Below are positions 4,881-61,060 of a stretch of 64,000 nt of DNA, piece by piece. The notes below the pieces were generated by a model. The model saw only the letters and a list, made by a program, of their open reading frames with translations. It searched no databases and had not been told where the DNA came from. The first letter of the stretch is position 1. Every line of letters begins with the position of its first letter. Made by a program: the position numbers and the translations under genes. This stretch comes from Blakeslea trispora (taxonomy: Eukaryota; Mucoromycota; Mucoromycetes; Mucorales; Choanephoraceae): contig JAIWNE010000004.1 of NCBI GenBank assembly GCA_025331445.1, positions 652,922 through 716,921 of the forward strand. Reading direction: 5' to 3'.

Positions 4881-7680
4881 TGAAGATTTGATAGATACAA
4901 AGAAAGTGATAAAGAAAAGAAAAGAAAAATCAAGGAGAAACATTCCAGCTTATTATATACTTGAAGTAGCAGCGAAATTCTCTCAATAAACACCAATGGT
5001 AGATTGACTTTGATCTGTCTACTTGAAGGGAATAATCACCGAACCTGACTTTATTTAAAGAACAGATACAATAGAAAGCTGAGAAAAAAAAAAGCTAATT
5101 TGACCTTTTGTTTATTTCTTGTTATAATTTCATTTGTAAAGAAAAGACCAAAAGGCATGCCTTTCAAGAGAATGGTTTTAAAGGCTACAATGTCATCTCT
5201 TTTTTCTTACTGTAGTGCTTGCTTTCTCATATTTTGGATTGTTTATATAAACGCGTATTTCACAAACAAAAAAAGGATTTTCATCTTGAACCCAATGGGA
5301 TCGATTGGAATAGCTAAAATTTCTCTTGATTGTACCACTCGACAACCACATTTGTCCATTTTCTTTATGTCAGTGTAACCAATCAGATTTGAAGTTAGCC
5401 TGGGTTACTTTTTTTTTTTCTTTTCGATAACCAGGACACTTGCTTTATGGCTCGAAAATCTTGATGAATTTGAAGCAAATTAAAACAGAAAGGGAACTCA
5501 TTGACTAACAAAGCATAAAAGAGATTGCAAGTAAACCGCTTCATAACAGTTGCTGCTAAAAAAGACAAAGAACGTATTTGAATCGTTGATTCGGCGCTTG
5601 TATTCTCCCATCTGTTTTGATTTGGATTGTCCATTCGATCTAGAAGTCGTTGCAACTAAACTGAAACATCGTCCCAGTTGTCCTGCTTTTTTCAAGTAAA
5701 TTACAAACTGGGTTATGTTGAGAGATTATAAGAAACAAAAGAAAAGGGGCGCCATGCGTTTGCAAAAGTAATCTTACCCTGAGCCTTATAGAACTGTAAA
5801 GACACGCATTGTTTTGTAACGCAAGTCCATACAATGTTGGCCTACCATAAATAGTAGTTTGTTAGTTTTGTCTGCTTTATTCCTTTTTCAGCTATACATG
5901 TAAAGGTGCAATGTTAGTCTGGATCTTGTACAATATTTACAGCGTGAGATACTTTCTGTCAATCATTCATACTATTCTATATTTTGCCCGTTACAAAATA
6001 ATGAGAAAAATTTTGTTTACAATCGTTTCGCCTGGTATGTTTGAGTTGGCAAAGAAAAAGTGAAAGCGTTTGACCTCAATGAAATACATCTTGTCAACAA
6101 ATCAAAATGCTCTTTTGTTTCTTTGTTTCTCTCGTTTCATCATTGGGTAAAAGCCCAAACATTATTCTCCAAATCAAAGGCTATTACATCGGATGGCTGT
6201 TCTAATCACATATGCTTATGAAAGCGTTTTTTTTTCTTATTGAATTTGGTTTCTTTTCCTACCATCAATTTTAAATCAAAAGTCTACGGATAGAAGCCTT
6301 TGCTTGCATTCCTTGTGTGAAAAACAGAGCTAACTTGTATTGACAAGAGGGCTTTGTATAGAGCAAAGATGGAAGCAATTGGTTAGAGTATGTTTCTAGT
6401 CCTGTACAGTCTAACAAAAGATATATATAAACATATGAAGAGGAAATGCAAGAAGAGTGAATGGAATAAATGAGTTGATTTTATTGTTCTTTTAGGCATT
6501 TGATCGGACGAATGATACAAAGTATATATCTTTTTAGAGTGAGCAGTAATAAAGACAAAATATGTGTAGGCATTCTTTTAGATAGTGGAGAGTATGTCAA
6601 GCGGAGAGTGTCAGACAACACAAGTAAGCGACTGATTTTCATAAAGCAGATTGAACCCAATTCAGTGTAGCGCATATAGAGAGTCAGGTAGAGAGAGAGC
6701 AAAGTGGACAACATAATGAGATAAACCAAAGAGTAAGAGGCCAACAAGCAAGATAGACCATGTAGTGAGAAACCAAGAAGCAAAGTAGACCATGTAGTGA
6801 GAAACCAAGAAGCAAAATAGACCAAGAGATAGAGAAGCAGCTTTTTTTTTTGGTTTGGTTTGGTTCGTTTGGTTTGAGGTTTTCTTCTTTGGTATACGCG
6901 TAGCAAGGGTGGCAGTAACAGTGCATGAATCGGGTTCAAAATAATAATAGTGATAATATTTTACAAAATAAAAGACTAAGCACTGCTCAAACGCATTCGC
7001 CGGATGAGCTAAGTGCTGGAATGCGAGCTTCAAGAAGCTCATTTTTATTTTCATTTTCATTCTTTTCACTACTGACAACCATCAAGACACACTTCAAGCC
7101 AAAACATGAATTTCAGCGAGCGCGTCAAACATGCATTGTTCAAGCAGAGAAATAATTTATAAAGCGCGTGCCTTATGAAGGCACACTAACACATATATAT
7201 ACCAGAAGATATAGAAAAACTACTTACCTTAAGCTTGCCTTGATCATAGCCGAACCTTGATAGAGATGAGAGAAAGAAAAGAGAAAAAAAAGAGGGGAGA
7301 AAAGTACTTTTTTTTTATAACTTTTTGTTTGTTTACAAGTGAAAAGACACTAAAAAGTTGAGAACCAACCAATTAAATGCAAGAATGACAAAACGTTCCC
7401 ATTGCTCTATCAACCATTAGCTGGGTTCCCTTATTAGCAACTTGCGTTCTCTTTTATGACCTTCATCGGCTTCGTTTTCCATTACGATAGCAGCTCGATT
7501 TCAGCGTATTTGACGAAAATATGTCTATAGGGTAGTATTAAATCAGCTATTTGCGTAAAAAGGTAATCTAGAGACTTACTCTGGAATCATCACAGCTCTT
7601 GTATCTTGAATTGAGAATTATCTTGTAAAGGCGAGATCATACTTGATTTTTGACTGACATAGTTAAACTGCTAAAAAAAA
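4881..7680. other. Long intergenic region without a supported gene
   Basis: About 2.8 kb of AT-rich DNA. Open frames at 5100-5834 and 6481-7155 translate to low-complexity sequence and have no splice or motif support. The minus-strand frames at 6481-7078 are opened by tandemly repeated sequence at about 6745-6828 and by a G/T-rich tract at 6841-6880. No RNA gene was recognised. Confidence 0.45.
6754..6822. repeat. Tandem duplication, about 32-bp unit
   Basis: The unit starting AGACCATGTAGTGAGAAACC occurs twice in direct succession with one base difference near its end, followed by a partial third start. It sits in non-coding DNA and makes spurious minus-strand reading frames. It looks like a local slippage or duplication event. 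Confidence 0.8.
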
Positions 7681-7870
7681 ATTGATTCAAGAACAAAGCA
7701 GTAAAAGATGTAGATTTATAGAATTTAATGTTAAGGTAGAGTCATGTGGCTATACTCAAATTTCAGCGATACATGTTTTGATACAGCAGCTACATATATG
7801 GAACGTCAGTATTTTGAACAACTACATAAAAGCAAATATATCATCTTCCTCAAACCTATCCTTTTTCAAC

Positions 7871-8230
7871 CTACAACTAAAAGCAGTAATTCTATTGTAC
7901 AATCATACAGTGTTGAGATCAAGGAGTGATGTGGGTCGCCTACAGTATAAAGATGTCCATCTGCGATATGAACAAGAGAGACTATCAAAAGCTATTCTGC
8001 AAATAAGACACCCAAAAGAAGCACAGTAAAAACATCAAGACTACTACTATAAGCCAGTAGACCAAATGCAGAAATGTACCAAGATACAAAACGCAATTTT
8101 CTCGAGCAATACGGAAAATGGTACTACCATTTCTTCATCGTTCGCTTCGACAACCTGCGGAATCATGCTAGTTAGAAGCAATGGCAGAGTTGTCGAAACG
8201 AGCACAGAGAATGTGGTCATAGACTCTCTA
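7871..8230 (+). pseudogene. Relic of a DIRS-type tyrosine recombinase, core deleted
   Basis: In one frame, broken by a TAA at 8027-8029, the translation LQLKAVILL...RSRSDVGRLQYKDV...RHPKEAQ is clearly related to LQLKTVLLL...RPRSDIGRLQYRDI...RTPKESQ of the recombinase at 51.9-52.7 kb. After the stop it continues YYYKP...IQNAIFSSN...ETSTENVV, matching the extreme C-terminus of the same protein (FYYKP, ITNSIFSS, ETKAENVI). About 100 residues between these blocks, including the HxxR catalytic motif, are missing. The first catalytic-Arg region remains. This is a dead, diverged fragment. About 40 bp upstream of it (7743-7785) also resembles DNA at 55236-55283 inside the palindromic element. Confidence 0.8.
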
Positions 8231-9203
8231 GCAGCACTTTTATTTTTAAATTTAATACAATCAGAAAAGCATTAATCCTTCATCTCTTTCCAAGCTAAGT
8301 TACTTTTTCAATCATTCTTAGGGTGGGAGAATCAATGCCAAGGCATTGTTCAAGGGTAGGTACCCACCACATCCTCTGTCAACTTGGCCATTGCTGCTCA
8401 AAGCCAATCTGTCCTAACCTGAGAAGTTGCTCTATATTAGTCAAAATTATACTCGTAAAATAAGGCAATTTGAGACACAGGTACGGTTATTGTGAAATAC
8501 GACTAAATTCAAGAACACTTTTCTTTTTACCATATCATATATAGAAACAAAAATTGTTTTATAGTGTAAATGCTCTCTTGCAAAATATAAAGATCTTTAA
8601 CCTAAAACAATATCTCTCTCATTCTTGGATTTATGTATGTTACTTGAAACAATTCTTTTAATTGGTCAAAATTAAAAAAAATCCAGGAAAGCATTGTCTA
8701 TGATTTCAAAGAAGTCATATTTGCTCCAATTGCAAAGGCAGTACCTTGATCTGAGCAGTAATTTAAACATGTGAGGTAGTTTGAGCTTTAGATTACTCCA
8801 AGGCTATAAGATCAACAAGATAGATAAAAAGGGTGCGCTGCATCTTTTACAAGCCATGATGGTGATTGTGTCTACTAGCAATATCTTTTTCTGTGGGGAA
8901 ATTAGGTTATTACCGAGAACCAAATCAAGATCTTGATTCGGTTTGAGATCTTTTCAAAGAAATTGCCTGATGAATCGAACTGACACAAAACCCAATATCG
9001 TCACTAGTGCACTTCAACTCTTCTAACGACTGTCCAAGCGATCAACCATGCTTGCAATTACCTAATTTGATCAAACACGTTTGACGGAGCGCACAATCTA
9101 TTTTTATTTAATTTGATTCTCCTCTTTAGTGTCTGTATTTCACTGTTTCATTTTTCTCTTCTTTTTCTCTCTCTCTCTTTTATTGTTATCTATACAACAA
9201 ACA
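8231..9203. other. Intergenic, promoter side of the coiled-coil gene
   Basis: About 970 bp with no supportable gene. Poly-pyrimidine tracts at 9148-9182 lie immediately before the start codon at 9204, consistent with a fungal promoter or 5' untranslated region. No repeat or RNA gene was recognised. Confidence 0.4.
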
Positions 9204-10589
9204 ATGGGAGTCCAAGATGTGGTAGCTCGACTGAACAAGTCAAAATCAGCCAACAATCCATCCAAAAACAATGGTGGTCAAGCTCTTAAAAAGAAAATAG
9301 TGATGCCCTCTTCACATGAATCAAACAAATTTCCTCCTTCACCTATTCCATCACCTACATCGACTATGCATAATTACACTAGTCAAAACACAAGCAGCAG
9401 TAGTATCAATAACAGCGGTGCTGTTTTTGGGTCTGGTAATATTGCATCTATGCTTCAGAAATTCGGTCAACCTGTACAACCATTACCTAAACAACACAAG
9501 TCAATACCTCAGTCAGCTGTATCAACACAACAACCATCAATGCAACCACAACATAACCGAGCCCAATCAAAGCCACTAACGCCACCCGAATCTCCTGTAA
9601 ATAGCTTGCAACAACAACAACAACAACAACAACAGCGACCTCAACAAAGAAAAATCACTGTAGCACCTATCGACAAAAGCAATGATTCTTACATCAAGTT
9701 TGACACTGTGGCAGATGAACTTGTCACTCTATTCCAAGATCTACTTGATCAGAATGCTGCTAATGAAGAGTACATAAAAAAACTAGAACAAGATGTCGAA
9801 CAACATGCATCTGCCGCTACAAAAGTTCGAGACTATGAAATCCGAGTAGAATATTTAGCGCTTAAATTAGAGCAGGTCTCTGAAGAAAGAGATTATTTTG
9901 AAAAAGAATTGAATGAATTAGCTAATAATTCGTCTCGGCAGACTGGATCTACCATCAATTCACCCACTTCTTCAACCATCAAATCTAGGCTAGAGACAGG
10001 TCCTTATCAGTCCGAGATTCAACAAGATATCATCATCGAGGAAGAGCAATCCTTACAAAAACAGAATAACGATGCCTACATTGCAGATATTTTACATGTC
10101 TATGAAGAGATGTCCATGGGTGATGAAGCCATGCAAGAAGATGTTGAACAGCAATTGGTTGACTGCGACAAAGGGGTTCAAATGGCTATTGCGAGCTATG
10201 TATCTAGTTTGGAAATAGAACGCCTCGAGACAAGAAATTTACAGAAAATCGTGATAAAACAAGACGAGCTAATTACGAAGTTGGAACATAAGCTGGAAGA
10301 ATCATCAGATGAACTGCTAAAAGAACAAGTAGAAGTGCAACGTATCGAATTAGAAAATAAACGAGAATTGCTATCTCAGTTACTAAACGAACGTGAAGAC
10401 TTACTGAGACGATTAAATTCACAAAAGAGAAGATCTTCTATGGAACTTATATCCAACATGCTTCAACCTGATACAATCAGCTATAGCAATAGTCACCGCA
10501 ACTCTTGTTCGTCGGCTTCATCAAGAGGTACACCTCCTTTAACAGCACCTCCTAAGCAGCCTTTACCACCATTACCAGCAACCACTTGA
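9204..10589 (+). CDS. Low-complexity and coiled-coil protein, function unknown
   Basis: A single exon gives 461 residues from MGVQDVVARL. I chose this ATG because the in-frame upstream extension to 9129 is pyrimidine-driven low complexity without its own ATG. Residues about 1-150 are Ser/Pro/Asn/Gln-rich with a poly-Gln run encoded at 9607-9635. From about residue 155 to 265 and again from about 330 to 420 the sequence is Glu/Lys/Leu-rich with heptad-like spacing (LEQDVEQ, ALKLEQVSEERDYFEKEL, LEHKLEESSDELLKEQVEVQ), that is, long coiled coils. The tail ends in a Pro-rich segment (TPPLTAPPKQPLPPLP) that could bind SH3 domains. I do not recognise a family; a cytoskeletal or polarity scaffold would fit but is only a guess. 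The Atg12 gene lies tail-to-tail downstream. Confidence 0.75.
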   Translation: MGVQDVVARLNKSKSANNPSKNNGGQALKKKIVMPSSHESNKFPPSPIPSPTSTMHNYTSQNTSSSSINNSGAVFGSGNIASMLQKFGQPVQPLPKQHKSIPQSAVSTQQPSMQPQHNRAQSKPLTPPESPVNSLQQQQQQQQQRPQQRKITVAPIDKSNDSYIKFDTVADELVTLFQDLLDQNAANEEYIKKLEQDVEQHASAATKVRDYEIRVEYLALKLEQVSEERDYFEKELNELANNSSRQTGSTINSPTSSTIKSRLETGPYQSEIQQDIIIEEEQSLQKQNNDAYIADILHVYEEMSMGDEAMQEDVEQQLVDCDKGVQMAIASYVSSLEIERLETRNLQKIVIKQDELITKLEHKLEESSDELLKEQVEVQRIELENKRELLSQLLNEREDLLRRLNSQKRRSSMELISNMLQPDTISYSNSHRNSCSSASSRGTPPLTAPPKQPLPPLPATT

Positions 10590-49805: not shown

Positions 49806-50889
49806 TCAAGCATTCTTGTAATGGCTTTCTTCTAATTTTCTGATGAAAGGAGTTGTGAAAGAATGAGCGACATTGGCTAATGCTTGTTTAGCAGCAGGAG
49901 TAAAAGTAGAAAACAAAGCAAATCCAACATATTGGTAAGAAGGATAAGAGATCAAGCCAATATCAGCTTCCAAGGCTTCCTTTACAAGTTGGGCATGACG
50001 TTCAGGAGACAAGTAGAGATACTTGGCAGACTTTGAGAATGAGGCGGTCATAGCTGTGTCGATATAGCCGGGAGCAATGGTGTTGACTGAGATGTTGTCG
50101 TCTTTGCCCAAAGCACGAAGATCCTTACAATAATTCATGACAGCAGCCTTAGAAGCAGCGTAACTCAAGACATAAGGAGGAGCGAATAAACCACAGATAG
50201 ATGAAACAACAGCAATTTGGCCACCCTTGCCTCGCTTCTTCATACTCTTGTAGACAGAATTAATACCAGCAATAGCACCCATGACGTTGATTTGTAAGAT
50301 TTTCTGAGACTGATCCAACAACTCAGTGTTGGGCACTACACCAATACCTGCATTAGCAATAAACAAGTCAATCTTATACTCGTTTGTGTGAGCATCAAAG
50401 AAAGAGGAGACAGCTTGGGTATCAGAAACATCCATTTGAACAATCTTGACATCAGACGAACCCAATTCCTTACACTCTTTGGCGACCTTCTCGAGACGTT
50501 CTATCGTATGATGATTGTGTAAATATATTTCTAGCTATTTGAATAGCAAGGAAACACTTGAAGACAACTTACCCATATTACGAGCAATTAAAACAAGCGA
50601 GACCTTATCCTTTGCATAGGCATGTGCAAGTGCTTCTCCAATACCAGCACTAGTGGGATAAAATAATTAGGGTATTCAAAAGAAATATCACCTTATTTTT
50701 TTTTCTCCTGGAAACTTACTTGGCGCCTGTAATAGCTACCACCTTGGGTGTTAATTTCTTTTTAGCAATAGTGCTTGTAAACAAGGACTTGAAGAGATTC
50801 CAAAGGGAAAGCAACAAGGTAAGGTGAGCTGTAATGATGGCTAATATATTTAGCACCAAATCTTTTAAGGCAGTGTTGAAAGGAACCAT
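49806..50889 (-). CDS. Membrane-anchored short-chain dehydrogenase/reductase
   Basis: Three exons from MVPFNTALKDLVLNILAI (50889) to 49806. Residues about 5-40 are a hydrophobic N-terminal anchor. The Rossmann motif is VVAITGANAGIGEALA, split by the first intron. Downstream are the NAG motif (FIANAGIGVV) and the catalytic Ser and Tyr-x-x-x-Lys (VVSSICGLF then SYAASKAAV). PGYIDTAMT is the C-terminal cofactor loop. The arrangement resembles ER or lipid-droplet SDRs such as 3-ketodihydrosphingosine reductase-like and 11-beta-HSD-like enzymes, but the substrate cannot be read. The start at 50889 is preferred to an in-frame ATG at 51021 whose extension would precede the anchor. The giant palindromic element begins 300 bp upstream. 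Confidence 0.88.
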
Positions 50890-51198
50890 CTTCAATTCAA
50901 TAACTTGAAAGTTTGAACAAAAAGAAAAAGAGAAGAAGAAAAGAGAAAGACTTGGGTGAGCTGAGCAAAATGTCAACCTTTCTTGTAAATAGGGTTGTAC
51001 GACACAAAATCCTGAATGCATCTCATTTATAGTAGAGGGGTTTGTAACTGTCAGTTACTCATCATCTTTATTTGCCATTCATTCTCAGCTGTCTTTACGG
51101 AAAGTCTCTCGAGAATGAAAGTGATAGGCATGATGTTCAGGGCAAAAATAAGCAAAAAAACAAGCTACTTTTATTCACGTATCCTGTACAGTGCTTAC

Positions 51199-51248
51199 GG
51201 TCCTAAATGGCGGATTTCAAAAATCATTTGGTGGTTTCCAAAAATCCA
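51199..51248 (+). repeat. Outer subterminal repeats, left arm (continue at 52856-52945)
   Basis: After the CAGTG terminus the arm consists of degenerate units about 21-22 bp long built on AATNGGCGNTTTNCAAAAAT. Successive units are AAATGGCGGATTTCAAAAAT, ATTTGGTGGTTTCCAAAAAT, then beyond the insert CAATTGGCGTAAAATGAAAA, CAATAAGCGTAAAA and CCAATCAGCAGTTTTCAAAA. The same series occurs in the right arm at about 60905-61048. Their position matches transposase-binding subterminal sites of other elements; binding is inferred. Confidence 0.7.
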
Positions 51249-51297
51249 ATTTGTTGTCGTACCTAAACTAATTCCAGTTGACTCCACTTCGGCATCC

Positions 51298-51384
51298 AAT
51301 GTGATACATGCTCTCTGAGCCACGCTTTATTTTCCTTATATATAAACAATAATAGTAATAAATCCCTTTTTCCCTCATATCTTT
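51298..51384 (+). repeat. Left inverted terminal repeat of the DIRS-type element
   Basis: Starts AATGTGATACATGCTCTCTG and runs through a TATATATAAACAATAATAG segment to CCCTCATATC. Its complement is at 52740-52825 with one C/T difference. The 46 bp outside it (51252-51297) have no counterpart at the right end but are copied, inverted, in the internal region. Confidence 0.9.
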
Positions 51385-51409
51385 CTAAGCCGCGCATCGT
51401 GGAAATCCT

Positions 51410-51946
51410 ATGACTGATACAACTACTAATAATGAACGAAGAACATATACCGAGGAAGAGGTCATTGAATTACTTCGACGAGTCAAAACGGCGGAGCAAG
51501 CTGATGCTCAAAAATCCAGAGAAGAACGAGAGCTACCATTGGGGATCACGTCCACTTTGGAACAATTTACGAAGCAACAACATCAAGATAATTTCAAACG
51601 CTACAAACGAGAAATCACAAAATATCACCATGAGGAATGGACTGTGGCCGAAGAAATCAACCGGTCCTTCATCCCAAAACTTAAACAATACACTGTTGAC
51701 ACGACTCAGGTCGTTAACGCTCACTACAAAGGAGCAGAAGTTAGTAGACTGCATGGACGAGCAGCCACTGAAATTTATGAGCAACTCTGCACTATCCAAG
51801 CAGGGGAGATCTCAGCCGACGAAGCCTATCAACTTTTGGAAGAGACCATTGACAGCGCCAAACGACTGGCAACTCATGCATGGATTCAAGGGAAACAACA
51901 TGATGAAGATGCAAAAGACTATGCGATTAGAGCACTCTCACATTAG
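51410..51946 (+). CDS. DIRS gag-like N-terminal fragment
   Basis: 178 residues from MTDTTTNNERRTYTEEEV. Charged and helical (EEVIELLRRVKTAEQADAQ, KSREERELPLG), ending with EISADEAYQLLEETID then AKRLATHAWIQGKQ, which resembles the helical ORF1/gag of fungal DIRS elements. The frame stops (RALSH) exactly where recombinase homology begins in another frame, so I read 51922-51950 as the deletion junction rather than a natural gene end. In a full element gag would be followed by reverse transcriptase, RNase H and methyltransferase-like sequence. It cannot support autonomous movement by itself. Confidence 0.7.
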   Translation: MTDTTTNNERRTYTEEEVIELLRRVKTAEQADAQKSREERELPLGITSTLEQFTKQQHQDNFKRYKREITKYHHEEWTVAEEINRSFIPKLKQYTVDTTQVVNAHYKGAEVSRLHGRAATEIYEQLCTIQAGEISADEAYQLLEETIDSAKRLATHAWIQGKQHDEDAKDYAIRALSH

Positions 51947-52656
51947 ACCAACTACAATTGAAGACTGTTCTCCTACTATGCATCTCAACCATGTGGCGTC
52001 CAAGGTCTGATATTGGGCGACTCCAATACAGGGACATTGTGTTGAAAAGAGATGGATTAGCTTCAAGCATTCGGATCCATGCGCGAACGCCTAAAGAAAG
52101 CCAAGTCAAATCCGTGACATTAGGTACGATTGAAGATGACGACCTCTGCCCAGTCAGGACCACCTATTCATTCGTTACAAAGACAGCTCACCTTAGGGAA
52201 GGTATGCCTGACGACCATACCTTGTTCTTAGCCTATATCGACTCACCGGAAAAGCTCCCTATGTCTGTCCGCCCTACCACAGTGGCAAACTGGGTGAAGG
52301 AAGCCTTGGGAAAGGCAGGTATCAATACTAAAGACTACCAAGCACATTCAGTCAGGGCAGCTTCGAGCACGAAGGCAATCGAGTTGGGTCACTCAATTCA
52401 AGAGGTCAAAAAGCATGCTAATTGGAGCTTAAACTCAAATACTTTTGAAAATTTTTACTACAAACCATCGTCGCAGACATCCTCTAGTACTGCAATTACC
52501 AATTCAATTTTTTCTAGTCCGGAAAAGCGTATCACATTGGATGCCGAAGTGGAGTCAACTGGAATTAGTTTAGGTACGACAACACATACCAATGTTGACG
52601 AAACGAAGGCAGAAAATGTGATACATGCCCGACCCTGGTACCGATTTTTCGGTTGA
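51940..52656 (+). pseudogene. Tyrosine recombinase C-terminal part (DIRS type)
   Basis: Open for about 239 codons without a good ATG at its head. Catalytic elements are visible: the first Arg region (MWRPRSDIGRLQYRDI), HxxR (HSVRAASSTKA), HANWS and the nucleophile Tyr in NTFENFYYKP. The N-terminal core-binding part is missing and the frame is offset from the gag-like ORF, so a normal protein is unlikely from this copy. The last 40 codons overlap the internal complementary region (52529-52628), an overlap also known for DIRS recombinases. A diverged, core-deleted relative lies at 7871-8230. Confidence 0.85.
52529..52628 (+). repeat. DIRS internal complementary region
   Basis: Bases 52529-52584 are the exact reverse complement of the left end 51252-51307, and 52588-52628 are the exact reverse complement of the right end 52812-52852. 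Between them lies CAT (52585-52587), that is ATG on the complementary strand. Read as one piece the segment equals the complement of the element's own right-end/left-end junction, as needed to template circularisation in the DIRS replication model. Confidence 0.93.
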
Positions 52657-52739
52657 CCATTTGATTTCTTATTATCATATATCATATATATTTCTTATCA
52701 TTTTCCATCCCTCGAAAAAAAAAAAAAATGAAAATTTAG

Positions 52740-52825
52740 AAGATATGAGGGAAAAAGGGATTTATTACTATTATTGTTTATATATAAAGAAAATAAAGCG
52801 TGGCTCAGAGAGCATGTATCACATT
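52740..52825 (-). repeat. Right inverted terminal repeat of the DIRS-type element
   Basis: Complement of 51298-51384. It follows an A-run after the recombinase stop and carries TTTATATATAAAG near its middle. The outermost 27 bp (52826-52852) are unique to this end and are copied, inverted, in the internal complementary region. Confidence 0.9.
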
Positions 52826-53018
52826 TTCTGCCTTCGTTTCGTCAACATTGGTATTGGCGTAAAATGAAAAATCAATAAGCGTAAAAAAAAATATCCAATC
52901 AGCAGTTTTCAAAATGTCAATGAGCGCATACCGAGATTTCAGATAGCGTATTCTCAAAAACCAAAGGGCAGACTTCCACATTCTAAAAGACGTCTCTTTT
53001 ACTTTAAATATTTTTCAA

Positions 53019-53480
53019 ATGAGCAACACGCATAAATTCTTTATTGAGGACGGTCAGGGCGGAATAACTACGGAAGACGGTGCAGAGGCCATGGACTACA
53101 TTATCGAAGAAGGAGAGGAATTCAATCTTCGAAACTTGACTAATCTAAGTGAATATAATGATTGTCAACCTGTTCCCATTGAGCTCGATGCCGAAGACGA
53201 GAGCTTAGAGAGCAGAATATCGCTTGTTATCGAAAAAGTGAATAAGACTATTGCTGACAAAGTTGGCAATGTTAGGAGCTACACGTCTTATATGGACGAT
53301 CAGAAAATGTTGTTCCTTTACTACTTAAAAATCAAATTTTTTTCGGCAGCTAAAGCAGCAGAGTATGCTGGAATTGCCGAGAGAACTGCTCAAACTTGGG
53401 CAAAACGAATCAGAACAGAACCCGGTTGGAACATATATGCCAACTTGTCACACAAGTGTAATCAGCATGAAGAAAAATAA
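53019..53480 (+). CDS. HTH-domain protein, left arm (probable transposase N-terminus)
   Basis: 153 residues from MSNTHKFFIEDGQGG. The first 70 are acidic. The segment KAAEYAGIAERTAQTWAKRI (about residues 112-131) is a helix-turn-helix of the kind that opens Tc1/mariner-type transposases in Mucorales, where it is followed by WxIY and a DDE_3 domain. Here GWNIY appears but the frame ends 18 residues later, with no DDE motif downstream. I therefore read it as a truncated transposase able at most to bind DNA, possibly a repressor or dominant inhibitor (inference). An identical copy lies on the opposite strand in the right arm. Confidence 0.75.
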   Translation: MSNTHKFFIEDGQGGITTEDGAEAMDYIIEEGEEFNLRNLTNLSEYNDCQPVPIELDAEDESLESRISLVIEKVNKTIADKVGNVRSYTSYMDDQKMLFLYYLKIKFFSAAKAAEYAGIAERTAQTWAKRIRTEPGWNIYANLSHKCNQHEEK

Positions 53481-54400
53481 GATTTTCACCAAAGACTTTG
53501 GTCCTCGTGAAATTCAATTAGACAAAGTAAGCATTAGAAACTACAGCATGCAATAAATACTTAATTCAATTCTGTTTAGTGGAAGATATCTGGTGTCGAT
53601 ATCAATGAGATGATGAAGATGAAGAGAAGAAGCACTGTTGCCTCGGTCGAGCAACAGAAACCAATTGATGAGACCGATTACCTGTAAGTCTCTTCAAGCG
53701 AGTCAGAAACCAGCTACTCATACTGCCTCTTTTTCATGTACATTTACTTAAATTAGGTTGCTGTCTGGCATTTTGGAGGTGCCTATTGACATTTGCTCTT
53801 TCGCCCTGGACGCCAGTCCAAACTTTCTTAGAAAGTTAAGAAGAAGTGTGTGTTGCTTACCGCACTTGGAGTTTGATGATGCTGTCCTTCTTAAGTTTTT
53901 GAAGATAAAGAGGGTAGGCTGTCATCATAGATAAAGAGAAAAAGATTTTAATGTATTTTTTGTTTGTTTAGGCTTTAGAAAAGAAGCAAGAAAAAGATGA
54001 TGAAGATGACGAAGAAAAAGATGATGAAGATGACGAAGAAAAAGATGATGAAGATGACGAAGAAAAAGATGATGAAGAAAAAGACGATGAAGAAAAAGAT
54101 GATGAAGAAGATGAAGAAAAAGATGATGAAGAAAAAGACGATGAAGAAAAAGACGATGAAGAAAAAGACGATGAAGAAGATGAAAAGAAGGAAGAAAAAG
54201 AGGATGATGAAGATGAAGATGAAGTTGTAGAGTTGCTTCTTCATGAGATGTTGATGGATGCCAAGAAGTCAAAGAACCCAGACGTTGAGGCATTAGCCAA
54301 AGTGACTAGAAGAACCGCCGAAAGAATATTTTGGCCTCTGACTCTGACCGAAGAGTCATTTATAACGTGCCTGTTATGTAACGTGTATACTTTGATGTGA
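53467..54400 (+). pseudogene. PD-(D/E)XK-like gene, 5' part, left arm
   Basis: Exons 53467-53526, 53580-53683, 53757-53913 and 53972 onward give MKKNKIFTKDFG, WKISGVDINEMMKMKRRS, ILEVPIDICSFALD, then a long Asp/Glu/Lys repeat and ELLLHEMLMDAKK, ending WPLTLTEESFI. At 54365 the reading runs into foreign sequence and stops at 54400. The continuation DQHVLAFIEYVLL is found in frame at 55393, so the gene is split by about 1 kb. The pattern resembles a large uncharacterised Mucorales family whose C-terminal half has a PD-(D/E)XK-like core. It begins inside the end of the HTH ORF (11-bp overlap, different frame). Confidence 0.65.
53990..54206 (+). repeat. Acidic (DDEEKDDE)n-coding tandem repeat, left arm
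   Basis: Tandem 15- and 24-nt units of GATGATGAAGATGACGAAGA type encode a run of Asp/Glu with periodic Lys. The complement in the right arm is at 59645-59861. The antisense and off-frame readings (poly-Met/Lys, poly-Phe/Ile) are artefacts of the repeat. Confidence 0.9.
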
Positions 54401-55379
54401 TGTTGTATAATAAAGACTATTAAGTACTTTTTGAGACTGTTAGTAGCTTTATTAAAACTTCAGAGAGAGAGAAGAAGGATTTATAATACACGTCTAATTG
54501 CTACAGGGATAATAGTTGAGGATTCCTAATTAGGAGATTCGTAATACATTGGGTGAACACCTCTTGTGGAGGTTAAAGGGATATTTAAATATAAGATAAT
54601 CAAGAGATTAGGACCGTTCTATAACAGGTGTTCATTGTTTATAGCAGAGCCCAGACCAATCTACACAAAGAACAAACAAACAATCAATATATCAGCCAAT
54701 GAGGACAACTGATCAGTAATGTGGTCAATCTAATTTATAAAAACAAAAGAAAAAAAAAGGTACCTTTTCCTTCTTTTCTTTCTTTAATTATTATTTAGAA
54801 TGAATACATTACAAACAAAGGTAACAAGGCTGTTCTTTAGGCTGTGAAATAATTGCTAATGATCTCTTAGAGTAATTACTGCGCGCTTTCTTGCTGTCTA
54901 GATGACATGCAGAAAAGTAACTGTTTGGAAAGAAGGCATGTATTTCATCATGATTGTTGTCGCGTATCTGTACTGATCAAAATGAATAGGTCTTTTTTTA
55001 TTTGTTCTTTTCTTAAGAAGAGGTAAGCGATCCATTCAAGAGCTAAAACGATGTCTAAGAAACAGAAAAACTAAGACAATGTTTACACTTTAGGTTTTTC
55101 TATGTTGGAGGTAATCTATACACTGTTTTTTTAGAGGGAAGGACAACTCTCCCCCTTAAACCCCCTCCCCCTCTCAGGTTGATTCAGGCTTAATCTATGT
55201 AAGTTTATTCGCGTCTAGTACTAAATTCTTATATCATGTGGCTGTGCTCTAATTTTTCTCAAATTTCAGTAATACATGTTTTGATTAATTTTAGGCCCTG
55301 TAAAGACCTTGTTTCAAGATTTGGGGTTCTCATATATGTCCCAGCCAAAACATGTTGATCTATAAATGACTCTTCGGTC
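54365..55379. other. About 1-kb segment splitting the PD-(D/E)XK-like gene, left arm
   Basis: Bounded by a 13-bp direct repeat AGAGTCATTTATA (54352-54364 and 55380-55392). It contains no recognisable coding sequence. There are A/T runs, C-rich tracts near 55150-55176 and a long perfect hairpin at its right edge. The mirror copy is at 58472-59486 in the right arm, so it entered before the arms were last made identical. The stretch 55236-55283 resembles 7743-7785 near the recombinase relic. Confidence 0.6.
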
Positions 55380-55411
55380 AGAGTCATTTATAGATCAACA
55401 TGTTTTGGCAT
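55344..55411. repeat. Perfect long hairpin, left arm
   Basis: CCAAAACATGTTGATCTATA followed by ATGACTCT, a short TCGGTC loop, and the complementary strand. It is an inverted copy of the gene sequence just to its right (TTTATAGATCAACATGTTTT), as if synthesis had folded back at the small palindrome TGACTCT/AGAGTCA. The mirror copy is at about 58440-58507. Confidence 0.88.
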
Positions 55412-56183
55412 TCATTGAATACGTCCTCTTGACAGATAGATCCTTGTTGGTGTCGAGGTAATCATCTAGATTTAGATACACAACGTTCTCTAACTTGCCT
55501 TCATAATTAGATCCTCAGGCCACATACATTTGAGCGACACAGAACCAAGCAGCAGCAACGGCATTGATTCTTGTCATCGTTTGAAGCCTGACTTCTTGAT
55601 CATGATGCCTTTCAAAGGTTCGAATGTTGGTCTTGTGGCGGTTGAAGTGAAGCAGCCCAGCGCCAAGTCTTCGCAGGTCTTGTCGGACAGATCGAAGCTT
55701 GCTTTAGAATGCAAGCGAATGGTAGATGATCAGGTGCTGAAAGGATCCAAGGTCGTTTGGTGTTCTTGTAGCTGGTAATATACTCTTCCTTTATAAACTA
55801 TATGTTTCTAATATTTTGTCAAAAAGGATACGGTTGTCGGGTATTCAGCTGTACTTTGAATGAGACAGGTGTTTACCTGTTTGTAGAAGAAGAAGCCTTT
55901 TCGCTGGTCAAGACAATGAATGATCTAGCAATACTGCCAGATGTAGTACGAGTGTTTTGTCGGCTCAAGGTAAAAAAAAAAAAGCACTTGAAAGCAATCG
56001 ATTAATATACAGAATGACTCATTTCTCTTGCATAAATCTTTATAGAGAATGATGAGTCAGAGCATGGCAAACCTGACAAAGAAAAAGAAGGTGAAAGGTT
56101 CTTCTCGTGTGTCTTTGACACCTTTGATCAAACCAACAGTGGTTTTGCCAACAGGACGCTGCTCGGTGCCTAACACCCAATAA
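55380..56183 (+). pseudogene. PD-(D/E)XK-like gene, 3' part, left arm
   Basis: Exons about 55380-55457, 55511 to about 55774, 55828-55969 and 56045-56183. Key core: LKPDFLIMMPFKGSN then GLVAVEVKQPS, an Asp followed by E-x-K, the PD-(D/E)XK nuclease pattern. Then GYGCRVFSCTLNETGVYL, EEEAFSLVKTMNDLAILPDV and a basic tail (LTKKKKVKGSSRVSL) ending VPNTQ. Between VDDQVL and AGYGC the frame shifts: one extra base near 55742 (CTGAAAGGATCC) separates KDPRSFGVLVAG from the rest, so this copy is frameshifted as well as split. Metal-dependent nuclease activity is only suggested by the motif. Confidence 0.65.
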
Positions 56184-56602
56184 AAGTTTTTTCTCTCTGT
56201 AATAATAAGTGGCATTTTTAAGCCAAGATCTGTTTGATATGCTTTGTAGCAGCCTAACCAGTCCATTGAGCTTTTCATTCTGCCAAGAAGTTGATGACAT
56301 TCGGATTTTACCTTCTAGATAACGATACTTTCAAGCACAAAACAAATCGATCCCAACTAAACTTACACTCATCAAATATTATTCACTTTGCTCTGGTTGA
56401 GAGAACAGAAGAAGGGGATTGATTTTCTTAATTTACATCATTATAGTTTGGATCTTTAAGGAAAAAGCAGCTTTTATAACAAAAAAGCAGTTACTTTTTC
56501 TGTGACATCCCTTCCGTATCGGAAATCAATCCCCTGTCAGGCCATATATCCTACCATCATTGTAGATTGTGCGTTATCTGAGGAGGATATGTCAGTTCAG
56601 CC

Positions 56603-56977
56603 ATGCGTACTCATGATGCTACTAATTCTGAGAGCGATCCATGCAGAGATCGCACATTACTTGATTTCTTGAAGCTTGCTATTGCCGATGGCATCAAGCA
56701 GAAGAGTTTATTCTTTGAGTTGAAATTGTTCTTTTCACCCATCTTTTTTGGTATCAGTATTTTCTATCTGTTTAATCAGAATATTGACACTCCTTTCAAA
56801 CTGATGACTAAATATCAGGATGCTATCTCTGATTGTATCAGTAATCAGACTCCTAACATACCAGACATCATTAAAAAATACTTTAAGAGCTTTTTAAAAC
56901 CTTCTCACAAGATACGCGGTGTTGACAGGTCTTTGTTTTTGCAACTCATTGTCCCTACACTTAGTCGAACAAACTAA
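56603..56977 (+). CDS. Spacer ORF, 124 residues, unknown
   Basis: Opens with MRTHDATNSESDPCRDRTLLDFLKL and contains an aromatic hydrophobic stretch (LKLFFSPIFFGISIFYLF) that could span a membrane, then YQDAISDCISNQTPN and a basic end. It has an ATG and natural-looking composition but no motif I recognise. It is the only sizeable plus-strand frame in the spacer and might be a remnant of the original internal gene of the transposon. It shows no DDE residues in a recognisable context. Confidence 0.45.
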   Translation: MRTHDATNSESDPCRDRTLLDFLKLAIADGIKQKSLFFELKLFFSPIFFGISIFYLFNQNIDTPFKLMTKYQDAISDCISNQTPNIPDIIKKYFKSFLKPSHKIRGVDRSLFLQLIVPTLSRTN

Positions 56978-57013
56978 AACACAAGAGAACTATAGTAGAA
57001 GACAGAGAGGCTA

Positions 57014-57277
57014 TCAGCCAAATGGATTGGTTGACCAAGTGATTGATGCATTGTTCTTTATTTCAATGCTGTATTGGAAGTAGTGTCTCTGGAAAGGTTG
57101 CTGGTGCCTGTTGCGATGTCGCAGTCTGCCATTAGGTTGGAGAAATACTTTGATCGTTTGCATTTTGTTTAGCCCAATATGATTAGAACTGCTATCACCG
57201 TCGAGAAATACCAATTCTCTTTTGAGTATGAGTTTGAAGACACAGTATGCAATAGCAACGACGGCGATATCTGACAC
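57014..57277 (-). CDS. Spacer ORF, 87 residues, unknown
   Basis: Minus-strand frame beginning MSDIAVVAIAYCVFKLILK, then LVFLDGDSSSNHIGLNK and a basic His/Gln/Arg-rich part ending NASITWSTNPFG. No family recognised. The fragment LVFLDGDSSSNHI could recall the strand-Asp of a DDE nuclease but the other residues are missing, so I do not assign it. Confidence 0.3.
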   Translation of the reverse strand: MSDIAVVAIAYCVFKLILKRELVFLDGDSSSNHIGLNKMQTIKVFLQPNGRLRHRNRHQQPFQRHYFQYSIEIKNNASITWSTNPFG

Positions 57278-57666
57278 ATTGTCAGTAAAAAATTACAGTC
57301 CTTGTGTTGTTAACTGGCACTTTTTCTTTTTCTTAACTTATTGTCTTAAGAAAAAGTAACTGCTTTTTTGTTATAAAAGCTGCTTTTTCCTTAAAGATCC
57401 AAACTATAATGATGTAAATTAAGAAAATCAATCCCCTTCTTCTGTTCTCTCAACCAGAGCAAAGTGAATAATATTTGATGAGTGTAAGTTTAGTTGGGAT
57501 CGATTTGTTTTGTGCTTGAAAGTATCGTTATCTAGAAGGTAAAATCCGAATGTCATCAACTTCTTGGCAGAATGAAAAGCTCAATGGACTGGTTAGGCTG
57601 CTACAAAGCATATCAAACAGATCTTGGCTTAAAAATGCCACTTATTATTACAGAGAGAAAAAACTT

Positions 57667-58471
57667 TTATTGGGTGTTAGGCACCGAGCAGCGTCCTGTT
57701 GGCAAAACCACTGTTGGTTTGATCAAAGGTGTCAAAGACACACGAGAAGAACCTTTCACCTTCTTTTTCTTTGTCAGGTTTGCCATGCTCTGACTCATCA
57801 TTCTCTATAAAGATTTATGCAAGAGAAATGAGTCATTCTGTATATTAATCGATTGCTTTCAAGTGCTTTTTTTTTTTTTACCTTGAGCCGACAAAACACT
57901 CGTACTACATCTGGCAGTATTGCTAGATCATTCATTGTCTTGACCAGCGAAAAGGCTTCTTCTTCTACAAACAGGTAAACACCTGTCTCATTCAAAGTAC
58001 AGCTGAATACCCGACAACCGTATCCTTTTTGACAAAATATTAGAAACATATAGTTTATAAAGGAAGAGTATATTACCAGCTACAAGAACACCAAACGACC
58101 TTGGATCCTTTCAGCACCTGATCATCTACCATTCGCTTGCATTCTAAAGCAAGCTTCGATCTGTCCGACAAGACCTGCGAAGACTTGGCGCTGGGCTGCT
58201 TCACTTCAACCGCCACAAGACCAACATTCGAACCTTTGAAAGGCATCATGATCAAGAAGTCAGGCTTCAAACGATGACAAGAATCAATGCCGTTGCTGCT
58301 GCTTGGTTCTGTGTCGCTCAAATGTATGTGGCCTGAGGATCTAATTATGAAGGCAAGTTAGAGAACGTTGTGTATCTAAATCTAGATGATTACCTCGACA
58401 CCAACAAGGATCTATCTGTCAAGAGGACGTATTCAATGAATGCCAAAACATGTTGATCTATAAATGACTCT
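57667..58471 (-). pseudogene. PD-(D/E)XK-like gene, 3' part, right arm
   Basis: Mirror copy of 55380-56183 with the same translation, including the frameshift near CTGAAAGGATCC (about 58109) and the E-x-K core GLVAVEVKQPS. The plus-strand frames 57550-57810 overlapping it are shadows. The shared defect shows the gene was already broken when the two arms were copied from one another. Confidence 0.65.
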
Positions 58472-59486
58472 GACCGAAGAGTCATTTATAGATCAACATG
58501 TTTTGGCTGGGACATATATGAGAACCCCAAATCTTGAAACAAGGTCTTTACAGGGCCTAAAATTAATCAAAACATGTATTACTGAAATTTGAGAAAAATT
58601 AGAGCACAGCCACATGATATAAGAATTTAGTACTAGACGCGAATAAACTTACATAGATTAAGCCTGAATCAACCTGAGAGGGGGAGGGGGTTTAAGGGGG
58701 AGAGTTGTCCTTCCCTCTAAAAAAACAGTGTATAGATTACCTCCAACATAGAAAAACCTAAAGTGTAAACATTGTCTTAGTTTTTCTGTTTCTTAGACAT
58801 CGTTTTAGCTCTTGAATGGATCGCTTACCTCTTCTTAAGAAAAGAACAAATAAAAAAAGACCTATTCATTTTGATCAGTACAGATACGCGACAACAATCA
58901 TGATGAAATACATGCCTTCTTTCCAAACAGTTACTTTTCTGCATGTCATCTAGACAGCAAGAAAGCGCGCAGTAATTACTCTAAGAGATCATTAGCAATT
59001 ATTTCACAGCCTAAAGAACAGCCTTGTTACCTTTGTTTGTAATGTATTCATTCTAAATAATAATTAAAGAAAGAAAAGAAGGAAAAGGTACCTTTTTTTT
59101 TCTTTTGTTTTTATAAATTAGATTGACCACATTACTGATCAGTTGTCCTCATTGGCTGATATATTGATTGTTTGTTTGTTCTTTGTGTAGATTGGTCTGG
59201 GCTCTGCTATAAACAATGAACACCTGTTATAGAACGGTCCTAATCTCTTGATTATCTTATATTTAAATATCCCTTTAACCTCCACAAGAGGTGTTCACCC
59301 AATGTATTACGAATCTCCTAATTAGGAATCCTCAACTATTATCCCTGTAGCAATTAGACGTGTATTATAAATCCTTCTTCTCTCTCTCTGAAGTTTTAAT
59401 AAAGCTACTAACAGTCTCAAAAAGTACTTAATAGTCTTTATTATACAACATCACATCAAAGTATACACGTTACATAACAGGCACGT
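58472..59486. other. About 1-kb splitting segment, right arm
   Basis: Mirror of 54365-55379, including the hairpin at about 58440-58507. No coding sequence recognised. Confidence 0.6.
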
Positions 59487-60384
59487 TATAAATGACTCTT
59501 CGGTCAGAGTCAGAGGCCAAAATATTCTTTCGGCGGTTCTTCTAGTCACTTTGGCTAATGCCTCAACGTCTGGGTTCTTTGACTTCTTGGCATCCATCAA
59601 CATCTCATGAAGAAGCAACTCTACAACTTCATCTTCATCTTCATCATCCTCTTTTTCTTCCTTCTTTTCATCTTCTTCATCGTCTTTTTCTTCATCGTCT
59701 TTTTCTTCATCGTCTTTTTCTTCATCATCTTTTTCTTCATCTTCTTCATCATCTTTTTCTTCATCGTCTTTTTCTTCATCATCTTTTTCTTCGTCATCTT
59801 CATCATCTTTTTCTTCGTCATCTTCATCATCTTTTTCTTCGTCATCTTCATCATCTTTTTCTTGCTTCTTTTCTAAAGCCTAAACAAACAAAAAATACAT
59901 TAAAATCTTTTTCTCTTTATCTATGATGACAGCCTACCCTCTTTATCTTCAAAAACTTAAGAAGGACAGCATCATCAAACTCCAAGTGCGGTAAGCAACA
60001 CACACTTCTTCTTAACTTTCTAAGAAAGTTTGGACTGGCGTCCAGGGCGAAAGAGCAAATGTCAATAGGCACCTCCAAAATGCCAGACAGCAACCTAATT
60101 TAAGTAAATGTACATGAAAAAGAGGCAGTATGAGTAGCTGGTTTCTGACTCGCTTGAAGAGACTTACAGGTAATCGGTCTCATCAATTGGTTTCTGTTGC
60201 TCGACCGAGGCAACAGTGCTTCTTCTCTTCATCTTCATCATCTCATTGATATCGACACCAGATATCTTCCACTAAACAGAATTGAATTAAGTATTTATTG
60301 CATGCTGTAGTTTCTAATGCTTACTTTGTCTAATTGAATTTCACGAGGACCAAAGTCTTTGGTGAAAATCTTATTTTTCTTCAT
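59451..60384 (-). pseudogene. PD-(D/E)XK-like gene, 5' part, right arm
   Basis: Mirror copy of 53467-54400 with the same exon borders and acidic repeat (59645-59861). It reads ILEVPIDICSFALD through WPLTLTEESFI and then runs into the splitting segment. No base differences from the left copy were noticed. Confidence 0.65.
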
Positions 60385-60832
60385 GCTGATTACACTTGTG
60401 TGACAAGTTGGCATATATGTTCCAACCGGGTTCTGTTCTGATTCGTTTTGCCCAAGTTTGAGCAGTTCTCTCGGCAATTCCAGCATACTCTGCTGCTTTA
60501 GCTGCCGAAAAAAATTTGATTTTTAAGTAGTAAAGGAACAACATTTTCTGATCGTCCATATAAGACGTGTAGCTCCTAACATTGCCAACTTTGTCAGCAA
60601 TAGTCTTATTCACTTTTTCGATAACAAGCGATATTCTGCTCTCTAAGCTCTCGTCTTCGGCATCGAGCTCAATGGGAACAGGTTGACAATCATTATATTC
60701 ACTTAGATTAGTCAAGTTTCGAAGATTGAATTCCTCTCCTTCTTCGATAATGTAGTCCATGGCCTCTGCACCGTCTTCCGTAGTTATTCCGCCCTGACCG
60801 TCCTCAATAAAGAATTTATGCGTGTTGCTCAT
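60371..60832 (-). CDS. HTH-domain protein, right arm (probable transposase N-terminus)
   Basis: Identical 153-residue translation to 53019-53480, reading outward-to-inward from the right terminus. Both copies start about 226 bp from the element ends once the nested insert is discounted, so each terminus looks like the 5' end of a Tc1/mariner-type element. That is what would be expected if one half of a transposon had been duplicated in inverse orientation. Confidence 0.75.
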   Translation of the reverse strand: MSNTHKFFIEDGQGGITTEDGAEAMDYIIEEGEEFNLRNLTNLSEYNDCQPVPIELDAEDESLESRISLVIEKVNKTIADKVGNVRSYTSYMDDQKMLFLYYLKIKFFSAAKAAEYAGIAERTAQTWAKRIRTEPGWNIYANLSHKCNQHEEK

Positions 60833-61060
60833 TTGAAAAATATTTAAAGTAAAAGAGACGTCTTTTAGAATGTGGAAGTCTGCCCTTTGGTTTTTGAGAA
60901 TACGCTATCTGAAATCTCGGTATGCGCTCATTGACATTTTGAAAACTGCTGATTGGATATTTTTTTTTACGCTTATTGATTTTTCATTTTACGCCAATTG
61001 GATTTTTGGAAACCGCCAAATGATTTTTGAAATCCGCCATTTGGGACCGTAAGCACTGTA

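What the first reader, a model, noticed from the sequence alone, without database searches (positions are those of the whole stretch)
51187..61060. Giant palindromic Tc1/mariner-like element with 3.7-kb arms and no visible transposase
Seen: outer ends TA-CAGTGCTTACGG... and its complement; mirror-image arms of about 3.71 kb with a constant coordinate sum of 113851; an 847-bp unique spacer; identical mirrored ORFs; no DDE motif. Known: TA duplication and CAGTG ends are typical of Tc1/mariner (IS630). Inferred: one half of a transposon (terminus, HTH start of the transposase, captured nuclease-like gene) was duplicated in inverse orientation, and the resulting double-ended unit transposed as a whole, because TA flanks both outer ends. 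Inverted terminal repeats of nearly 4 kb are far longer than usual for this superfamily.
Basis: partly seen in the sequence, partly recalled or inferred. Interest (0 to 1): 0.9.

Follow-up and report, generated by a model that had tools for sequence, protein, structure and literature searches.

The report
Palindromic Tc1-like transposon derivative in Blakeslea
In the mould Blakeslea trispora, one copy of an ordinary 1.8-kb jumping gene has become a 9.9-kb mirror-image element, apparently by copying one half over the other, which could make it a source of self-silencing hairpin RNA.

Summary
Over 3,711 aligned columns the arms differ by 2 substitutions and a poly-A indel. The genome (Blakeslea trispora, G000) holds ordinary relatives with TIRs of about 185 bp; the C33 copy has an intact Tc1-type (DD34E) transposase ORF. 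Each arm is the first 649 bp of that element (TIR plus HTH part) joined to a multi-exon gene without another close copy, itself broken by two dispersed repeats. Both substitutions lie in the outer 65 bp of the left arm; in a genome-wide scan that two-base haplotype occurs at one other end, the 3' end of the C36 copy. So the left terminus looks like an original 3' TIR, and the arms like an inverted copy seeded inside the TIRs (gene conversion or gap repair in place). A second TIR-bounded palindrome (33.3 kb) lies on C11. In build it parallels maize Mu killer; seven paper searches aimed at such structures listed no Tc1/mariner example.

The parts
51187..51251 (+). Left outer terminus: TA plus the first 63 bp of the TIR, haplotype T18/T46 (3'-TIR-like)
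51252..52852 (+). Nested DIRS-type element, internally deleted: ORFs 51410-51946 and 51958-52656 (tyrosine recombinase); first 684 bp 99%, last 922 bp 96-97% to longer copies (about 3.8-4.3 kb) elsewhere; ATT at both junctions
   Evidence: (Phage_integrase E 1.2e-4, 22.3 bits, under the curated cut-off of 27.1)
52853..53439 (+). Rest of the TIR and 5' (HTH) part of the Tc1-like element, left copy; similarity to full-length copies ends at 53439
53437..56183 (+). Captured multi-exon gene, left copy, from ATG at the Tc1 junction to TAA (exons placed by eye on GT-AG; the part after the insert agrees with the public model P0121); KPDF...EVK motif; exon 4 broken by 54365-55392
54372..54626 (+). 255-bp dispersed repeat inside the captured gene
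54627..55350 (+). 724-bp piece of a second dispersed repeat, which in other copies lies beside a Pif1-like helicase ORF (Helitron-like, name from recall)
55345..55408 (.). Small fold-back scar (28-bp arms, 8-bp loop) at the edge of the insert; present in both arms
56502..57348 (.). 847-bp spacer, single copy; part (56581-56786) 83% to C227:81777-81980
57349..61060 (-). Right arm, whole (TIR, HTH part, captured gene, repeats), ending in TA
60371..60832 (-). 153-aa truncated transposase ORF, right copy (left copy 53019-53480)
57667..60414 (-). Captured gene, right copy (coordinates mirrored from the left copy)

Best explanation
A non-autonomous, inverted-duplication derivative of an ordinary Tc1-like transposon of Blakeslea trispora. 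An element with the 5' TIR, the HTH part of the transposase gene, a captured gene and its 3' TIR sat at this TA site (inferred). After a break inside it, the 3'-TIR side annealed to the homologous 5' TIR in inverse orientation and copied the 5' half plus cargo, leaving only the old outermost bases of the 3' TIR; the uncopied rest became the 847-bp spacer (inferred from the mosaic left terminus). The arms are thus made, or kept, identical by gene conversion. The product keeps two ends, so the family's transposase could still act on it, and read-through RNA would form a long hairpin over the HTH exon and TIR, as proposed for maize Mu killer (both inferred, untested).
For: Arms end exactly at the TIR tip and TA on both sides. 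The 1,805-bp copy on C33 has an intact 467-aa ORF, DDE_3 E 4.9e-23, 34 residues between the second D and the E. Both substitutions between the arms fall in the outer 65 of 3,711 columns (chance 3e-4 if uniform). T18+T46 haplotype: of 18 genome places within 2 mismatches 2 have both T, 16 have both C, none is mixed; the other T,T place is the 3' end of the C36 copy. The arm body is not specially C36-like: 15 of 582 differences to C36, against 7 of 529 to C13:145671, 8 of 573 and 7 of 573 to the C11 arms, 7 of 464 to C40, 12 of 584 to C157, 13 of 584 to C33, 17 of 584 to C38. No third copy of the cargo was found, so no separate donor is needed. A second TIR-bounded palindrome is on C11. A small fold-back in the cargo shows inverted copying at a break.
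Against: The mosaic rests on two bases in 65 bp, and the DIRS insertion lies exactly where the switch would be seen, so later conversion between arms bounded by the insertion fits too. Two C-to-T changes could be independent (one is at a CpG; the 5' end of C36 has T46 without T18). C36 may itself have received them by conversion. The scan does not see ends with further changes. In some searches only the best candidates were scored (40 of 375, 40 of 50). No relative's genome was available to show the state before the palindrome. C13 holds a palindrome that is not bounded by these TIRs, so large inverted duplications also arise here in other ways.
Confidence: 0.5

Rival explanations
1. One reading: one half was duplicated inversely (fold-back or joining of two tails) somewhere else, giving a double-ended unit that then transposed into this TA site as a whole.
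For: TA at both ends; both tips present; an intact transposase ORF exists in the genome.
Against: Predicts identical termini; they differ at two of 65 bp with a haplotype found at another copy's 3' end. No second copy of the palindromic unit found and no empty paralogous site, though a single genome can hardly show either.
Confidence: 0.2
2. The palindrome arose by any route; a DIRS element then inserted 65 bp from the left end, and ongoing gene conversion keeps everything inside it identical while the outer 65 bp drift.
For: 0 substitutions in the inner 3,646 aligned columns against 2 in the outer 65; DIRS in one arm only.
Against: Does not explain why both drifted bases match the C36 3' TIR with no mixed type among the 18 places.
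Confidence: 0.2
3. Assembly artefact (hairpin or chimeric read, collapsed repeat).
For: The contig ends 2.9 kb past the palindrome; the arms are nearly identical.
Against: Different flanks on the two sides, each matching only itself in the genome; DIRS in one arm only; 2 substitutions and 1 indel between arms; a spacer; no N in the window. A second case on C11 has arms that differ (2 substitutions, a 31-bp and a 1-bp gap).
Confidence: 0.05

Closest known systems
Mu killer (maize MuDR derivative; PMC3440606, abstract and passages seen)
   Same: Both TIRs come from the transposase-side end; two partial transposase copies in inverse orientation around an unusual centre; derived from one autonomous family of the same genome.
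   Different: Mutator superfamily, not Tc1/mariner; about 1.3 kb of mudrA on each side and no captured gene in the passages seen (its centre was not sequenced); silencing shown there, not tested here.
Tc1-like copies of the same genome on C33, C157, C36 (1.8 kb) and C38 (2.1 kb, with an insertion in its 3' TIR)
   Same: Same TIR, TA target and HTH exon (97-98% over about 649 bp).
   Different: They have TIRs of about 185 bp and a whole transposase region (ORF intact in C33, with a stop in C38, not translated for the other two); the palindrome has 3.7-kb arms and no DDE part.
Bari elements with long TIRs (PMC4877112, passages seen)
   Same: Tc1/mariner elements with long, in D. rhopaloa identical, TIRs.
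   Different: TIRs of about 255 bp around a transposase gene; no captured gene or half-transposase palindrome in the passages seen.
Galileo / Foldback-like elements (PMC4168063, passages seen)
   Same: Long TIRs reshaped by recombination and gap repair.
   Different: P superfamily; no half-transposase palindrome in the passages seen.
Atypical Ds with adjacent inverted repeat (PMC1978519, abstract seen)
   Same: Inverted repeat associated with a transposon and moved with it.
   Different: Ac/Ds element; a 598-bp repeat adjacent to the element, not making it up.

Membership tests
Tc1/mariner (IS630-Tc1-mariner) | TA target duplication at both ends | tested here: met
   TA at 51187-51188 and 61059-61060
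Tc1/mariner (IS630-Tc1-mariner) | Family TIRs at both ends | tested here: met
   the end 15-mer has 30 exact places in the genome, these two included; TIR alignment
Tc1/mariner (IS630-Tc1-mariner) | DDE transposase encoded by the element | tested here: not met
   only the HTH part in both arms; the DDE part (D-34-E) is in the C33 copy. So: a non-autonomous derivative, not a full member
Tc1/mariner (IS630-Tc1-mariner) | Cut-and-paste movement of this unit | not testable with these tools
   no empty site in this genome; no second copy found
Mu-killer-type inverted-duplication derivative | Both ends and both partial transposase genes derived from the same end of the element | tested here: inconclusive
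   met for all but the outer 65 bp of the left end, which look 3'-derived
Mu-killer-type inverted-duplication derivative | Silences the autonomous family through small RNA | not testable with these tools
   no RNA data
Pack-type gene-capturing transposon | Non-transposon gene between the TIRs | tested here: met
   multi-exon gene overlapping public model BD560DRAFT_420246
Pack-type gene-capturing transposon | Parental gene copy elsewhere in the genome | tested here: not met
   outside the acidic repeat only distant matches, 66% on C79 and 70% on C230
DIRS (nested element) | Tyrosine recombinase | tested here: inconclusive
   Phage_integrase E 1.2e-4 but under the curated cut-off
DIRS (nested element) | Terminal repeats with an internal region complementary to both ends | tested here: met
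   inner stretch, query 1276-1375, complementary to query 1-54 and 1559-1599 (rows C220:704170-704228, 705450-705503, 705509-705549, 705733-705775)
DIRS (nested element) | Reverse transcriptase/RNase H | tested here: not met
   internal deletion joining query 684/678 against copies of about 3.8-4.3 kb; no ORF left for it

The most novel reading that the evidence does not exclude
Tc1-like elements in this fungus repeatedly turn into TIR-bounded giant palindromes (window and C11) by inverted copying seeded in their own TIRs, and these loci act as natural silencers: read-through RNA folds over the transposase HTH exon and TIR and feeds the Mucoralean RNAi pathways, a Tc1/mariner counterpart of Mu killer in an early-diverging fungus.
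Probability: 0.15. Interest if true: 0.75.

Novelty: new variant of a known kind. Interest (0 to 1): 0.5.

Why it matters
It gives a sequence-resolved case in which a two-base TIR haplotype bears on two ways of making a palindromic transposon: duplicating a half and moving it, or converting an insertion in place through its TIRs. The centre of Mu killer could not be sequenced in PMC3440606; here the whole locus including the spacer is readable. If the arms are transcribed, it would be a natural long-hairpin trigger against a Tc1 family in a group of fungi where RNAi acts on transposons.

Tried and rejected
Considered and rejected or left open. (1) Giant inverted repeats as the normal form of this family: rejected, full copies have TIRs of about 185 bp. 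(2) C13:161487-175881 as a third double-ended element: its mirror runs 1,364 bp beyond the TIRs, and similarity resumes further out past a second Tc1 family and repeats of about 225 bp, so it is a larger inverted duplication, not TIR-bounded. (3) Other long TIR-to-TIR pairs as palindromes: C13:145671-152835, C213:1505-11541, C90:93565-98344 and C226:154683-158111 show inverted matches of only about 41-134 bp at their ends and nested insertions (C90 was read whole, C13 not at 148858-151318, C213 not at 6278-10299, C226 only to 158047). So of 7 long pairs looked at, 2 are TIR-bounded palindromes (window, C11), 1 lies in a larger palindrome, 4 are ordinary. This is no census: one search counted 119 places with up to 2 mismatches (the reversed control pattern: 48) and listed only the first part. 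(4) Empty sites by joined flanks: none, window or C11. (5) Third copy of the cargo as donor: none found. (6) Fold of the captured gene: no Pfam match, no solved-structure match to the three-row alignment, and the predicted model has mean pLDDT 38 and is not usable, so 'nuclease-like' rests on the motif alone, named from recall. (7) My first label of the 724-bp repeat as the 3' end of a Helitron did not hold on checking: its helicase ORF (Pif1 2B domain, E 1.8e-16) lies on the other side of it in L023; it is now called a piece of a Helitron-like repeat.
Full report
What is there. The window is the right end of a 716,921-bp contig (C220) of a 37.2-Mb genome. A piece of the captured gene matches the Blakeslea trispora model BD560DRAFT_420246 at 100%, on a contig of the same length, so the organism is Blakeslea trispora (Mucorales, Choanephoraceae). 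The mirror is real: 3,131 plus 530 nt at 100% around an 847-nt spacer. The left arm is interrupted by a 1.6-kb DIRS-type element 65 bp from its outer end. Without it, the arms align over 3,711 columns with two substitutions (positions 18 and 46) and a one-base poly-A difference.

What the arms are made of. Arm positions 1-649 match the four full-length copies listed (C33, C157, C38, C36) at 97-98%, and partial or diverged copies at 90-99%. The copy on C33 is a complete Tc1-like element of 1,805 bp from TA to TA, with TIRs of about 185 bp and a 467-aa ORF with DDE_3 (E 4.9e-23) and 34 residues between the second D and the E; the C38 copy has a stop in the DDE part, and C157 and C36 were not translated. 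Among the 120 listed of 468 relatives of that transposase, the organisms named are Mucorales such as Rhizopus, Mucor, Circinella and Choanephora. The palindrome carries only its HTH part; similarity ends right after ACATATATG. From that ATG (53437) a multi-exon gene runs to 56183 (exons placed by eye; the public model agrees for the part behind the insert). Its protein has a KPDF...EVK motif (EVK in 3 of 3 rows, KPDF in 2 of 3), like PD-(D/E)XK nucleases from my own knowledge; Pfam and solved structures give no match and the predicted model is too poor to use. Exon 4 is broken by a 255-bp dispersed repeat and a 724-bp piece of a second repeat that elsewhere lies beside a Pif1-like helicase ORF, next to a fold-back scar with 28-bp arms. 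All this is in both arms. No other close copy of the cargo was found: outside its acidic repeat the best matches are 70% and 66%. Homogenization of inverted-repeat arms by template switching is described in yeast (PMC8604942, start of abstract in a search listing).

How it was made. The two outer ends are not identical. The left one has T at positions 18 and 46. In a whole-genome scan of that 36-mer, 18 places match within two mismatches: 2 have T,T (the left end here and the 3' end of the C36 copy), 16 have C,C, none is mixed (ends with further changes are not seen by it). Among 26 ends read in held loci, T18 occurs in the same two only, and T46 also in the C36 5' end (ends with 15 or more differences in the first 50 bp were dropped). 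The body of the arm is not especially close to C36 (15 of 582 differences) but rather to copies on C13 (7 of 529, and 4 of 308 for the 372-bp fragments), C11 (8 of 573 and 7 of 573) and C40 (7 of 464). If two substitutions fell anywhere in the arm, the chance that both fall in the outer 65 columns is 3e-4. The simplest reading is that the left tip is the old 3' TIR of one insertion, and that everything inside was copied from the 5' side in inverse orientation, seeded in the TIR homology. A later homogenization of the arms, bounded by the DIRS insertion, is the main alternative. Either way gene conversion is needed, and neither needs transposition of a double-ended unit. TA on both sides does not separate the models. 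No empty site was found in the genome for either palindrome.

Is it alone? On C11 a 33.3-kb stretch (64129-97459) is bounded by the same TIR tips on both sides; its arms (about 3.3 kb: a Tc1 copy lacking its first 76 bp, next to a Pif1-like helicase gene, PIF1 E 2.3e-22) differ by two substitutions, a 31-bp and a 1-bp gap. Its inner left edge coincides with a DIRS-like element with a reverse transcriptase (RVT_1 E 7.8e-21), so its arms may once have been longer. A third palindrome on C13 has identical 3,542-bp arms but runs past the TIRs. Four other long TIR-to-TIR pairs are ordinary elements with nested insertions as far as they were read.

Comparison. Mu killer of maize is the nearest in build: both TIRs from the transposase-side end and two partial transposase copies in inverse orientation (PMC3440606, abstract and passages). 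There silencing is shown; here it is a prediction. RNAi acts on transposons in Mucor (PMC11943222, abstract). Long TIRs of Bari elements reach about 255 bp (PMC4877112, passages). Ten paper searches were run: seven aimed at palindromic, inverted-duplicated or long-TIR transposons listed no Tc1/mariner palindrome of this kind; three dealt with Mucorales transposons, the Blakeslea genome and RNAi. I saw listings, and opened five papers in part; most subscription papers are not in that library, and I did not search Repbase.

Verdict. Real, correctly seen, and partly correctly explained: a non-autonomous, Mu-killer-like inverted-duplication derivative of a Tc1-like family with a captured gene, most likely converted in place. 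New variant of a known kind.

Noticed in passing
G000 C11:64129-97459 (L001, L002, L039, L040, L053, L054, L061, L062): Second TIR-bounded palindrome, 33.3 kb, arms about 3.3 kb (Tc1 copy plus Pif1-like helicase gene); the spacer is full of mobile elements (two reverse transcriptase genes, an NDC10_II-type recombinase-like gene) and, by eye, holds a relative of the window's captured gene.
   Followed up: partly
G000 C13:160123-177245 and beyond (L048, L049, L051, L052, L063, L064): Palindrome with 3,542-bp arms at 100% identity and a 10-kb spacer; similarity resumes outside past a second Tc1 family (ends CAGTGAGTGAAAG, DDE_3 transposase) and repeats of about 225 bp.
   Followed up: partly
G000 C124:92283-92343 (L016): 61-bp micro-element: two TIR tips back to back between TA and TA.
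   Followed up: no
G000 C226:154683-158111, C213:1505-11541, C90:93565-98344: Second Tc1 subfamily (ends CAGTGCTTCCGGTTC) carrying the same 724-bp repeat type as the window's cargo, with one boundary shared by the three copies; perhaps a composite amplified by Tc1 transposition.
   Followed up: partly
window 51252-52852: DIRS element that lost its middle (RT/RNase H part) by an internal deletion with 7 bp of overlap at the joint.
   Followed up: partly
window 53988-54231 and mirror: Acidic (D/E/K) codon repeat in the captured gene, with many weak matches elsewhere in the genome.
   Followed up: no
L020 (G000 C178:10394-10767): Tc1 5' fragment broken at the same position (372) as the two on C13, sharing 27 bp beyond the break at about 92% identity: perhaps a common truncated derivative.
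   Followed up: no
window 49806-50465: Short-chain dehydrogenase gene (adh_short E 6.8e-29) pointing away from the left end of the palindrome.
   Followed up: no
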